Assembly (NCBI GenBank): GCA_018825865.1
Contig: JAHKAF010000099.1
Location: 1-11,154, forward strand
Length of the DNA stretch: 11,154 bases
Direction of reading: 5' to 3'
From: Nanobdellota archaeon
GTDB lineage: Archaea; Nanobdellota; Nanobdellia; Pacearchaeales; GW2011-AR1
Of the stretch, positions 6,470 through 10,732 are shown in pieces; the stretch's first letter is position 1; the number at the start of each line of letters is the position of its first letter. Under the pieces are notes generated by a model. That model saw nothing but the letters and a program-made list of their open reading frames with translations. It was not told the origin of the DNA and ran no database searches. Made by a program: the position numbers and the translations under genes.

Positions 6470-6593
6470 AGGGTTTGCACGGAAAGTGATTTGCTTATAA
6501 AGAAAGGGAAAAAGTTGAACGAAAAGTGAGGAAAAACCACTCAAAAATAGTCCCAAATCTTTAAATACAATTTATTTCTTATTCTTTTCGTTG

Positions 6594-6609
6594 ATACAAC
6601 AATTAGTGA
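6594..6609 (+). promoter_or_regulatory. Upstream NrdR-box-like site
   Basis: The 16-mer ATACAACAATTAGTGA agrees at about 11 of 16 positions with the NrdR-box consensus as I recall it (ACACWATATATWGTGT). It starts exactly 31 bp before the stronger site at 6625, about three helical turns, as in paired bacterial NrdR boxes. Confidence 0.5.
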
Positions 6610-6624
6610 CAAAAGAGGTTTAAC

Positions 6625-6640
6625 ACACAACATATTGTAT
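6625..6640 (+). promoter_or_regulatory. Downstream NrdR box overlapping the nrdR TATA box
   Basis: ACACAACATATTGTAT agrees at about 14 of 16 positions with the remembered NrdR-box consensus and contains the inverted pair ACAA/TTGT. Its last bases are part of the TATA box (6637-6645) and it covers the expected BRE, so bound NrdR should exclude TBP/TFB. Confidence 0.65.
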
Positions 6641-6645
6641 ATAAC
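6637..6645 (+). promoter_or_regulatory. TATA box of the nrdR-nrdJ operon
   Basis: GTATATAAC is centred 25 nt before the ATG at 6666, giving a leaderless nrdR message. A second TATA-like sequence at about 6558-6568 lies too far upstream for this geometry. Confidence 0.65.
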
Positions 6646-6665
6646 ATTTCAATTAATAAAACAAA

Positions 6666-7106
6666 ATGGAATGTATTTATTGCTTAAATGATTCGTCGAA
6701 AGTTACTGATAAAAGGAAATCTCCTGAAGGAATCAGAAGAAGAAGGGAGTGCCTTAAGTGCGGGAAAAGATTCACGACGTATGAAAAAGCATTTCAAAAT
6801 AACTTTTACATCATAAAAAAGGATAAAAACCGAGAAAAGTTCGATAGAGAGAAACTTGAGAAAGGAATTTTCAAGGCGTTTGAAAAAAGACCTGTTTCCA
6901 AAGAGAAGATTGATAAAATGATTAATAACATAGAAGAACAATTAAGAAGAAAGGGGAAAAAAGAAATAACAAGTTCAGTTATCGGGGAGATAATTATGAA
7001 GAAAATAAAAAATCTCGATTCTGTCGCATACATTCGGTTTGCGTCAGTTTACAGAGACTTTCAGGATGTTAAGGACTTCAAAAAAGAAATAAAAGAATTG
7101 GACTAA
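6666..7106 (+). CDS. nrdR: Ribonucleotide reductase repressor NrdR
   Basis: The protein is 146 residues, the normal length. An N-terminal zinc ribbon has C3, C6, C29 and C32, followed by the family signature RFTTYE (35-40). An ATP-cone domain spans about 47-137, ending in the conserved VAYIRFASVYRDF. NrdR senses ATP/dATP through the cone and represses ribonucleotide reductase genes by binding paired NrdR boxes. Two such boxes lie upstream of this gene, one on its own TATA box, so autoregulation of the operon is the likely mode. The nrdJ start is 1 nt after this stop. The first cysteine pair reads CIYC where bacteria mostly have CPFC. NrdR is mainly a bacterial family, so an old transfer from bacteria is plausible. 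Confidence 0.95.
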   Translation: MECIYCLNDSSKVTDKRKSPEGIRRRRECLKCGKRFTTYEKAFQNNFYIIKKDKNREKFDREKLEKGIFKAFEKRPVSKEKIDKMINNIEEQLRRKGKKEITSSVIGEIIMKKIKNLDSVAYIRFASVYRDFQDVKDFKKEIKELD

Positions 7107-7107
7107 A

Positions 7108-9537
7108 ATGGCAGAATACAACAACGGACTAAAAGATGAATTGAATCTTCCGCAATCGTCGGTGAGCGTGCTTGAAGCAAGATACTTGATTAAAGATAAT
7201 CATGGGAAAATAATTGAGACTGGAGAAGATATGCTAAGAAGAGTTGCGAGAGATATTGCTTCTGGAGAAAGTGATATAGAGAAGGCAAAGGAATTTGAAA
7301 AGAAATTCTTTGAGATAATGAGCAAAAGGTATTTTCTACCTAATTCTCCGACGCTGATGAACGCAGGAAGAAAACTTCAGCAACTATCTGCTTGTTTTGT
7401 TCTGCCAATTGAAGACAGTATGGAAGGAATATTCGAAACCCAAAAGAGCATGGCAATAGTTCACAAAAGTGGGGGAGGAACTGGATTTTCTTTCTCGAGA
7501 CTAAGACCAAACGGAGCATTCATCCATTCAACAAGCGGGCATTCTCCTGGGCCTTTGTCTTTTCTCTTCGGGTATAATGAGAATGCAGGACAGATAACAC
7601 AAGGAGGAAAAAGAAGAGGAGCGAATATGGGAATTTTAAGAGCAAACCATCCTGACGCTTTATGCTGGGCAAGAGCAAAGGAAAAGGAAGGGCAATTAAA
7701 AAATTTTAATTTATCAATTGCTTTCAGCAACGAAGAAATAGAAGCTATCAAAGAAGATGGGTATATCCTTATGGAAGACCCAAGACCTGGAAAGACATAT
7801 ACAATAGAAAATGCAGAAAAAAGAGTTAAGGAAATACATTTCGGAACAAATGAAAAATTCATAACTTCTTGGAAGATATCTAAAGATGAAAAATCTGTGA
7901 TTGATTCTATCTCCAGAAAAGAAATAGGAAAAGTAGAAAATAATAAGATTTACCTAAGAGCAAGAAGTTTGTTTGGGGTAATTGTTGAAGGAGCATGGAA
8001 AAAAGGAGAGCCAGGGATAATTTTTTTGGGAAGAATGAATGAGGCAAATCCCACTCCAGAAATAGGAGAAATAGAAAGTACTAATCCTTGCGGGGAGCAA
8101 CCATTACTTCCTTATGAAAGTTGTAATTTGGGAAGTATAAATTTGAGTGAAATGATTAATCCCGACGGTAAAATTGATGAAATCCTTTTGGAGCAAACCA
8201 TCCGTTTAGCAACAAGATTCCTTGATAATGTAATTGATAAGAACAAATATTCATTAAAAGAAATTGAGGATATAACAAAAGCTAATCGAAAGATTGGATT
8301 GGGAGTCATGGGGTTTGCGCATATGCTTGTAAAGATGGGTGTAAGTTATAATAGTCCAGAGGCAATAAAAATTGCAGAGAAAGTTATGAAGTTCATAAAT
8401 AATACTTCTAAGGATGAATCCCGAAAATTAGCAAAAGAAAAAGGAGAGTTTCCGAATTTTAGTCGAAGCATTTACAAGAACGGAGAACCGATTAGAAACT
8501 CGACGACGACGACAATAGCTCCAACCGGGACCATTGGAGTTATCGCTTCAACTTCACAAGGAATAGAACCAATATTCAAACTTATTACTTTAAGGAAAGT
8601 TAAAGACACTCTTGGACAAGATTTGATTGAAACTGATAGAATGTTTAAAGAATATCTTCAAAACAAAGGGTTATACGACGAGGAGATAATGCGAAAAATG
8701 GAGGAGGAAGGGTTGGAATTTTGGGACATCCCAGAATTTTCAGGAGTAAGAGATGAAATCAAAAGATTGTTTGTAACAGCTCACGACATCCCTACAGAAC
8801 AGCATCTGCGGATTCAAGCAGCTTTCCAAAAGTACACTGACAACGCAGTTAGCAAAACCATAAATATGCCAAGTGAGGCAACAAAAGAAGATGTTGCAAA
8901 TGCTTATTTAATGGCTTATGATTTGGGATGTAAAGGATTAACAATTTATCGGGACAAAAGCAGAGAGTTTGAATTGCTTACTGATGCGGGTAAGAAAGAT
9001 GAAATCAAAGAAGGATATTTGCTTGGAAAGATTGATATTGAAAAAGAAAAAAGGCCGAAGCTCATAGGAACAACAGTAAAACAGCAAACCCCTCATGGCA
9101 CAGCATTCATCACATTCAATTGTTTTGAAGATAATGGTTTGCAACCTTATGAGATATTTATCAACATCGGCAAAGGCGGGAGAGATGTCACTGCGATAGC
9201 AGAAGGATTTGGAAGATTGCTTTCATTAGCATTCAAATCAGGGGTTCCTTTAAAATATATTATCGAGCAACTAGGAGGAATAAGTGGAGAAACTCAGGCA
9301 GGGTTCGGAGTCGAAAAAATATTTTCTTTGCCTGATGCAATTGCAAAAGGATTAAGAGAAGCATATTCTCAGTTAGGAGAAGTAACCTCTAAAGAGAAAC
9401 TTAAGAAAGAAAAAAGAATTGAAGCTCCCGAGGGAAAAATCATAAATTCTGGAAATTTCTGTCCTGATTGCGGGGGAAGCATGATTCATTCAGAAGGTTG
9501 TCAGAAATGTCTCAGTTGCGGTTATTCGAAGTGTTAA
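7108..9537 (+). CDS. nrdJ: Adenosylcobalamin-dependent (class II) ribonucleotide reductase
   Basis: This 809-residue enzyme reduces ribonucleotides to deoxyribonucleotides using a thiyl radical made from adenosylcobalamin, without oxygen. The redox pair is C96 (LSACF) and C339 (ESCNLGS). The radical site is N326-P-C328-G-E330, and the spacing C328 to C339 matches Thermotoga NrdJ. Other family motifs are NSPTLMNAGR, KSGGGTGFSFSRLRP and the TTTTIAPTGTIGVIAS loop at 466-481. The C-terminus (about 650-809) carries the NrdJ accessory domain and a cysteine cluster C785, C788, C798, C801, C804, C809 for thioredoxin relay or zinc binding. There is no N-terminal ATP-cone, so overall activity control may rest on NrdR transcriptionally. 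It is coupled to nrdR. Confidence 0.97.
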   Translation: MAEYNNGLKDELNLPQSSVSVLEARYLIKDNHGKIIETGEDMLRRVARDIASGESDIEKAKEFEKKFFEIMSKRYFLPNSPTLMNAGRKLQQLSACFVLPIEDSMEGIFETQKSMAIVHKSGGGTGFSFSRLRPNGAFIHSTSGHSPGPLSFLFGYNENAGQITQGGKRRGANMGILRANHPDALCWARAKEKEGQLKNFNLSIAFSNEEIEAIKEDGYILMEDPRPGKTYTIENAEKRVKEIHFGTNEKFITSWKISKDEKSVIDSISRKEIGKVENNKIYLRARSLFGVIVEGAWKKGEPGIIFLGRMNEANPTPEIGEIESTNPCGEQPLLPYESCNLGSINLSEMINPDGKIDEILLEQTIRLATRFLDNVIDKNKYSLKEIEDITKANRKIGLGVMGFAHMLVKMGVSYNSPEAIKIAEKVMKFINNTSKDESRKLAKEKGEFPNFSRSIYKNGEPIRNSTTTTIAPTGTIGVIASTSQGIEPIFKLITLRKVKDTLGQDLIETDRMFKEYLQNKGLYDEEIMRKMEEEGLEFWDIPEFSGVRDEIKRLFVTAHDIPTEQHLRIQAAFQKYTDNAVSKTINMPSEATKEDVANAYLMAYDLGCKGLTIYRDKSREFELLTDAGKKDEIKEGYLLGKIDIEKEKRPKLIGTTVKQQTPHGTAFITFNCFEDNGLQPYEIFINIGKGGRDVTAIAEGFGRLLSLAFKSGVPLKYIIEQLGGISGETQAGFGVEKIFSLPDAIAKGLREAYSQLGEVTSKEKLKKEKRIEAPEGKIINSGNFCPDCGGSMIHSEGCQKCLSCGYSKC

Positions 9538-10411: not shown

Positions 10412-10732
10412 ATGGCAGATAAGGTTCCTGAATTGACAAACAACGGATTTAATGAATTCACTAAAAAGGGGTTGGTTTTAGTGGACTTTTTTGCGGAGTG
10501 GTGTATGCCTTGTTTGATGTTGGCACCTATTCTCGACGAGCTTAGTGATACATTCAAAGGAAAGATTAAATTCGGAAAAGTTAATGTAAGCGATGACCCG
10601 GCTCTTGCACAAAAGTTTAAGGTAAATTCTATCCCAAATCTGACTCTTATGAAAGATGGAAAAGTAATCAACCAATTTATCGGGGCAATGTCTGGAGATG
10701 AACTCGAGGAAAAGTTGAACGAGTATTTGTGA
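10412..10732 (+). CDS. trx: Thioredoxin
   Basis: The protein is 106 residues, standard for thioredoxin. It has the buried aspartate D25 in VDFFAEWC, the redox dithiol C31-M-P-C34, and the cis-proline P75 in SIPNLTLM. The central x residue is Met instead of the usual Gly of WCGPC, which may shift redox potential or partner choice. It is cytosolic, with no signal peptide. Class II ribonucleotide reductases are typically re-reduced by thioredoxin. With nrdJ less than 1 kb upstream, this protein is the obvious electron donor, though thioredoxins have many partners. No thioredoxin reductase is in the window. It has its own TATA box at leaderless distance and starts with ATG. Confidence 0.95.
   Translation: MADKVPELTNNGFNEFTKKGLVLVDFFAEWCMPCLMLAPILDELSDTFKGKIKFGKVNVSDDPALAQKFKVNSIPNLTLMKDGKVINQFIGAMSGDELEEKLNEYL

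What the first reader, a model, noticed from the sequence alone, without database searches (positions are those of the whole stretch)
6594..6666. Paired NrdR boxes, one placed on the TATA box, in an archaeal nrdR-nrdJ promoter
Two 16-bp NrdR-box-like palindromes start 31 bp apart (6594 and 6625). The better one shares its end with the TATA box and covers the BRE position. A bacterial-type repressor acting on archaeal TBP/TFB through its own conserved operator spacing would be a neat example of a regulator keeping its DNA code after moving to a different transcription machinery.
Basis: partly seen in the sequence, partly recalled or inferred. Interest (0 to 1): 0.7.

Follow-up and report, generated by a model that had tools for sequence, protein, structure and literature searches.

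The report
NrdR operator at archaeal start site
A DNA-binding switch best known from bacteria, which turns down the enzyme that makes DNA building blocks, is common in a large group of tiny archaea, and its predicted landing site lies around the start point of the gene rather than on the archaeal TATA box.

Summary
The paired boxes are real: box 1 (6594-6609, 11/16) and box 2 (6625-6640, 14/16), 31 bp apart, the best such pair in the window, unmatched in 5000 shuffles. They precede nrdR-nrdJ in a Pacearchaeota-type DPANN genome. The same pair lies upstream of nrdR in 103 of 129 loci (window included; 8 of 1290 shuffles) and 26 of 40 further loci, with a sharp 31/32-bp peak. A profile of these sites also finds three RNR genes away from nrdR promoters, and six non-RNR sites. 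So this is very probably an NrdR operator.

The placement claim fails. The boxes then fall near +6..+21 and +37..+52, suggesting a block of RNA polymerase rather than of TBP/TFB. Binding and start site are unmeasured. By-product: NrdR fused to anaerobic RNR in 15 fetched loci, 8 with an operator upstream.

The parts
6553..6567 (+). Predicted BRE (CCAAATC, 6553-6559) and TATA box (TTTAAATA, 6560-6567) of the nrdR-nrdJ promoter
   Evidence: 17.0 bits, first of 11,137 positions; TTTAWATA-like element (7 of 8 or better) at -37..-29 from box 1 in 83 of 104 anchored nrdR loci; conserved in the same-genus relative
6587..6591 (+). Predicted transcription start region (about 6589)
   Evidence: Inference: exact TTTAWATA lies mostly 29 bp before ATG at other genes of these loci (8 of 178 genes), read as leaderless starts; 6560 + 29
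6594..6609 (.). NrdR box 1, ATACAACAATTAGTGA, about +6..+21
   Evidence: 11/16 with C4 and G13; aligned in 104 loci; conserved in the same-genus relative
6610..6624 (.). 15-bp spacer between the boxes
   Evidence: Start-to-start peak at 31 (40 loci) and 32 (58 loci) of 129
6625..6640 (.). NrdR box 2, ACACAACATATTGTAT, about +37..+52
   Evidence: 14/16 with C4 and G13, best single match in the window; profile hit over 6594-6640, E 2.6e-7 in the own genome (the window was in the training set)
6638..6644 (+).
   Evidence: At most -7.9 bits; 3 of 104 loci, window included
6666..7106 (+). nrdR: transcriptional regulator NrdR (Zn ribbon + ATP cone, 146 aa)
   Evidence: TIGR00244 177.7 bits, cut-off 124.65; PF22811 and PF03477; PDB NrdR chains E down to 1.8e-40
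7108..9537 (+). nrdJ: class II (B12-dependent) ribonucleotide reductase, 809 aa, no ATP cone found
   Evidence: PF00317, PF02867, PF12637; TIGR02504 over its cut-off; only PF02867 gene in the held genome, no PF13597

Best explanation
6594-6640 is the NrdR operator of an autoregulated nrdR-nrdJ operon. Shown by sequence: two NrdR-type palindromes three helical turns apart, a conserved archaeal TATA/BRE upstream of them at a near-fixed distance within the window's family, and a cognate NrdR with its zinc and DNA-contact residues. Inferred: when dATP rises, the ATP/dATP-loaded NrdR tetramer binds both boxes (about +6 to +52), bends the initially transcribed DNA and keeps RNA polymerase from loading, opening or leaving, while the TATA/BRE upstream stays free for TBP/TFB. 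As no ATP cone was found in nrdJ, NrdR would be the main dATP sensor over dNTP synthesis in this cell.
For: Pair in 103 of 129 nrdR upstreams against 8 of 1290 shuffles, spacing peak only at 31/32; 1 of 183 other upstreams in the same loci, and that one coincides with the nrdR operator of G081; 26 of 40 further loci by rule, 24 of 40 by profile at E 0.01. Profile hits in 111 of 139 genomes with an NrdR match and 2 of 47 without (partly circular). Of 9 listed off-promoter hits, 3 precede RNR genes: nrdD in G166, class II RNRs in G032 and G159. Contact residues: R17 169 of 169, D15 147 of 169 (rest N or E), four Cys 169 of 169. TATA register.
Against: No binding, expression or start-site data. 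Box 1 is weak (11/16). 26 of 129 and 14 of 40 loci lack a qualifying pair. Six of 9 listed off-promoter profile hits are not at RNR genes. The TATA-to-box distance differs between families (near -33, -24, and -18..-9 in 10 of 35), so the exact register is not class-wide. The start-site ruler rests on 8 genes. The TATA matrix was trained on the window's family. A second, leaderless start at 6666 in this genome alone is not excluded.
Confidence: 0.8

Rival explanations
1. One reading: box 2 overlaps the working TATA box (6638-6644) and its BRE, and NrdR represses by keeping TBP/TFB off a leaderless promoter.
For: TATATAA overlaps box 2; its start lies 28-30 bp before ATG, close to the 29 bp seen at other genes.
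Against: At most -7.9 bits against 17.0 for 6560; 3 of 104 loci share it, window included; not conserved in the same genus while TATA 6560 and both boxes are.
Confidence: 0.08
2. Both promoters work: a conserved one at 6560 and a genome-specific leaderless one at 6638, with the boxes blocking polymerase on the first and TBP on the second.
For: As above for both elements.
Against: No conservation of the second element.
Confidence: 0.08
3. The palindromes act in the 5' leader RNA, as a hairpin or riboswitch-like element.
For: By the predicted start both boxes would be transcribed.
Against: No Rfam match; leader RNA folds no better than shuffles, z 0.68; match to a DNA-binding consensus with helical spacing, and box-to-TATA rather than box-to-ATG constancy.
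Confidence: 0.02
4. Chance similarity in AT-rich DNA.
For: The region is about 30-32% GC, and single 11/16 matches are common in the window.
Against: Shuffles, other-gene upstreams, further loci and co-occurrence with NrdR.
Confidence: 0.02

Closest known systems
Bacterial NrdR with paired NrdR boxes (S. coelicolor nrdRJ, E. coli nrdHIEF and nrdDG; PMC9110341, PMC12176259, PMC12051234, seen as passages and one section)
   Same: Two 16-bp palindromes, C4/G13, 15-16-bp spacer, site at the promoter/start of an RNR operon that often includes nrdR; NrdR with Zn ribbon, RRRR, D15/R17 and ATP cone.
   Different: Promoter is TATA/BRE, not -35/-10; box consensus leans to ATACAA..TTGTAT in the window's family; the pair starts a few bp after or around the predicted start site. 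Binding not tested.
Haloarchaeal nrdR-nrdBA operons (PMC3019208, passages; L228-L233)
   Same: Archaeal NrdR next to RNR genes.
   Different: Class I RNR, NrdR groups with bacteria in the small tree; upstreams have only weak pair candidates (none of 6 reaches 20/32) and no profile match.
Archaeal repressors acting by promoter occlusion (LrpA, Lrs14, Mdr1, TrmB; PMC5569661 and PMC2995911, passages)
   Same: Bacteria-like repressor on a TBP/TFB promoter; blocking polymerase recruitment, as the title of the LrpA paper cited in PMC2995911 says, is the mode proposed here.
   Different: Other protein families; a nucleotide-sensing tetramer on two spaced boxes. Their site positions were not compared here.

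Membership tests
NrdR operator (paired NrdR boxes) | Two 16-bp palindromes with C4 and G13 | tested here: met
   11/16 and 14/16, both with C4/G13
NrdR operator (paired NrdR boxes) | Spacer of 15-16 bp (three helical turns) | tested here: met
   15 bp here; peak 31/32 start-to-start in relatives
NrdR operator (paired NrdR boxes) | Lies at RNR and/or nrdR promoters | tested here: met
   Upstream of nrdR-nrdJ; only profile site in the own genome; 3 RNR sites and 6 non-RNR sites elsewhere in relatives
NrdR operator (paired NrdR boxes) | Bound by NrdR loaded with ATP and dATP; represses | not testable with these tools
   Needs purified protein
NrdR protein family (TIGR00244) | Over the curated cut-off, Zn ribbon plus ATP cone | tested here: met
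   177.7 against 124.65 bits; PF22811, PF03477
NrdR protein family (TIGR00244) | DNA-contact residues D15, R17 and RRRR | tested here: met
   D15, R17, R24-R27 in the window protein; kept across 169 sequences
Repressor that occludes TATA/BRE | Operator overlaps the TATA box or BRE | tested here: not met
   Conserved TATA ends 26 bp before box 1
cis-acting RNA element | Known RNA family or unusually stable leader fold | tested here: not met
   No Rfam match up to E 0.1; z 0.68, 145 of 200 shuffles fold as well

The most novel reading that the evidence does not exclude
In this archaeal class NrdR control is common (284 of 367 sampled genomes match NrdR) rather than a rare import, and in several lineages repressor and enzyme are one molecule: an NrdR module (Zn ribbon + ATP cone) fused to anaerobic RNR (NrdD), mostly with a second ATP cone, whose gene still carries NrdR boxes. 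The enzyme would then bind its own promoter and shut off its own synthesis when dATP is high. 15 fusion ORFs in fetched loci; operator upstream in 8 of 15, four of these not in the profile's training set; 119 of 120 listed homologues carry PF22811 with PF13597. DNA binding by a fusion is untested.
Probability: 0.45. Interest if true: 0.75.

Novelty: new variant of a known kind. Interest (0 to 1): 0.5.

Why it matters
Two of the papers seen call NrdR rare in archaea and describe its operators for bacteria (PMC9110341, PMC12176259, passages). In listings and passages of searches I saw no paper on NrdR boxes in DPANN archaea; capped listings were not read to the end, and Rodionov and Gelfand 2005 (recalled) was not seen. 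Here boxes, spacing and contact residues are kept on a TBP/TFB promoter, and a register of operator to TATA predicts how a bacterial-type repressor acts on eukaryote-like transcription: at or after the start site. It gives a testable regulon for dNTP supply in tiny, largely uncultivated archaea, and the NrdR-NrdD fusions offer a test case for an enzyme that represses its own gene.

Tried and rejected
Box 2 as a TATA/BRE blocker: not supported. RNA leader element: not supported. Chance: rejected. Helical phasing of TATA-to-box distances (modes near -33, -24, -15): looked suggestive, but the resultant length hardly differs between periods 9 and 12 (0.67 to 0.58 for 113 promoters), so no claim. 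Haloarchaeal nrdR upstreams (6 plasmid loci of close relatives): none of 6 reaches 20/32, no profile match up to E 0.5; no claim. Direction of transfer: a tree of 75 NrdRs with 8 bacteria leaves it open.

Rows dropped or special: L001 (copy of the window), L109 and L131 (no full NrdR N-terminus) are not in the operator counts. The 129 loci include the window. Loci without a qualifying pair are not in the TATA register counts (104 anchored, where box 2 may run into the start codon; 103). 17 of 130 anchored promoters scored under 6 bits and are not in the position counts. Of the 40 further loci, 37 hold stand-alone nrdR and 3 fusions, picked by hand from the listed rows, mostly the top ones; L212 has only 25 bp upstream and the start of L216 was misplaced by the script. 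L128 (nrdR cut by a contig end) is not counted as a fusion; L126 is cut by a contig end; L114 has only the first half of NRDD before its stop; L129 has one ATP cone and a very long branch. The hit table ends near E 0.005, so unlisted sites were not examined.

Full report
Setting. The window is contig C18 of a 590-kb, 110-contig genome, 77% complete. A scan of named genomes with its NrdR confirmed 13 loci: 12 are Pacearchaeota, Nanoarchaeota, Woesearchaeota or archaeon BMS3Abin17 records, the nearest a Candidatus Pacearchaeota bin (88% identity over residues 1-145), and one is a contig labelled Zambryskibacteria. nrdR (6666-7106) passes TIGR00244 (177.7 bits, cut-off 124.65) and is followed after 1 bp by nrdJ, a class II RNR. 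In the held genome PF02867 matches only this gene and PF13597 none. No ATP cone was found in nrdJ.

The observation. Against ACACWATATATWGTGT (recalled) they match 11 and 14 of 16; the E. coli nrdHIEF operator printed in PMC12176259 (passages) matches 13 and 11 with the same 15-bp spacer. C4 and G13 are the GC pairs whose inversion cost about 50-fold of binding in PMC9110341 (passages; the mapping from its positions 9 and 18 is mine). With both required, the pair scores 25, the runner-up in the window 18, and 0 of 5000 shuffles reach it.

Relatives. NrdR matches 139 of 186 relatives, 129 over cut-off, and 284 of 367 genomes of the class at 85% completeness or more, 262 over cut-off. Of 129 nrdR upstreams (window included), 103 have a core pair scoring at least 20 at spacing 30-33, against 8 of 1290 shuffles. 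Over spacings 20-60 there is one peak, 31 (40 loci) and 32 (58), with at most 8 elsewhere. Upstreams of other ORFs in the same loci give 1 of 183; by coordinates that one is the nrdR operator of G081 seen from a divergent ORF. In 40 loci from genomes not used before, 26 have the pair by rule and 24 have a profile match at E 0.01. The consensus of 104 sites is ATACAATNTATTGTNN and ATACAATATATTGTAT; the invariance of C4 and G13 there is by selection.

Genome-wide search. A sequence profile of the 104 sites has hits at E 0.01 in 113 of 186 genomes: 111 of the 139 with an NrdR match and 2 of the 47 without. This is partly circular, since the training sites come from these genomes. Less circular: among the listed hits (E up to about 0.005) nine lie away from nrdR promoters. 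Three precede RNR genes: nrdD followed by a radical-SAM gene (G166, E 1.6e-5), a class II RNR (G032, 7.9e-5) and an RNR with ATP cone about 3.5 kb before nrdR (G159, 6.1e-4). Six do not (G122, G144, G113, G138, G124, G132; E 2.6e-4 to 4.8e-3), and two of those lie inside long ORFs.

The promoter. Aligned on box 1, the loci show AAA at -38..-36 and a TTTAWAA-like stretch at -34..-28. A TTTAWATA-like element lies at -37..-29 in 83 of 104 loci; windows of the same width elsewhere give 0-19 of 104. Box 1 to ATG varies from 46 to 202 bp, so the operator is tied to the TATA and not to the gene start. In the window this element is TTTAAATA at 6560-6567. At other genes in these loci exact TTTAWATA is most often 29 bp before ATG (8 of 178 genes, 25 exact matches in all), which I read as leaderless starts. 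By that ruler transcription starts near 6589, box 1 is +6..+21 and box 2 +37..+52. In the window's family 72 of 78 scored promoters have the TATA at -36..-32 from box 1; in other families 19 of 35 have it at -27..-21, 10 at -18..-9, 4 at -35..-33 and 2 farther. What holds class-wide is 'around the start site', not one register.

Mechanism. Contact residues are kept: four Cys, R17, R25 and R26 in 169 of 169 NrdRs, R27 in 168, R24 in 152, D15 in 147. The known tetramer binds two boxes about three turns apart and kinks each by close to 90 degrees (PMC9110341, passages). On DNA at and just after the start site this should obstruct polymerase loading, opening or escape; that TBP/TFB remain bound is inference. 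Most characterised archaeal repressors act by promoter occlusion (PMC5569661, passages), so the kind of mechanism is not new; the wiring is.

Fusions. In 15 fetched loci NrdR is the front of a longer ORF. Pfam finds Zn ribbon, ATP cone and NRDD in 15 of 15, with two cone stretches in 14; L126 is cut by a contig end and L114 has half of NRDD. An operator lies upstream in 8 of 15: L036, L065, L099, L117, L126, L129, L223, L225; L065, L117, L126 and L129 were in the training set of the profile. A homologue search with the N-terminal 300 residues listed 120 of 5243 proteins; 119 of the 120 carry PF22811 with PF13597, and the named ones are Woesearchaeota, Aenigmarchaeota, Nanoarchaeota/Nanobdellota and one Desulfofervidus; the length filter of that search favours long proteins. 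Searches showed no paper on this fusion (listings only).

Verdict. The boxes are an NrdR operator with high likelihood; the TATA-overlap reading is not supported; binding and start site remain to be measured.

Noticed in passing
L036, L065, L099, L114, L117, L118, L121, L122, L123, L126, L127, L129, L223, L224, L225: NrdR module fused to anaerobic RNR (NrdD) in one ORF, mostly with a second ATP cone; operator upstream in 8 of 15. L223 has two profile matches upstream, at 2617-2664 and 2816-2862.
   Followed up: partly
L144 (PCXM01000021.1) 2-229: A contig labelled Zambryskibacteria encodes an NrdR fragment 78% identical to the window's: binning error or gene transfer.
   Followed up: no
L228-L233, about 80 to 30 bp before nrdR: Haloarchaeal plasmid nrdR genes have a weak palindrome-like pair about 30 bp apart; below threshold in 6 of 6 and no profile match.
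   Followed up: partly
window 10412-10732: A thioredoxin gene lies on the same strand downstream of nrdJ, a possible RNR electron donor.
   Followed up: no
window 6613-6618 and spacers of relatives: The spacer between boxes is often purine-rich with AAAGAGG-like runs (window: caaaagaggtttaac); meaning unknown.
   Followed up: no
proteins P0018, P0024, P0062, P0080, P0045, P0109: Some fusion homologues carry PF14528 or PF14890, which I recall as intein-type domains.
   Followed up: no
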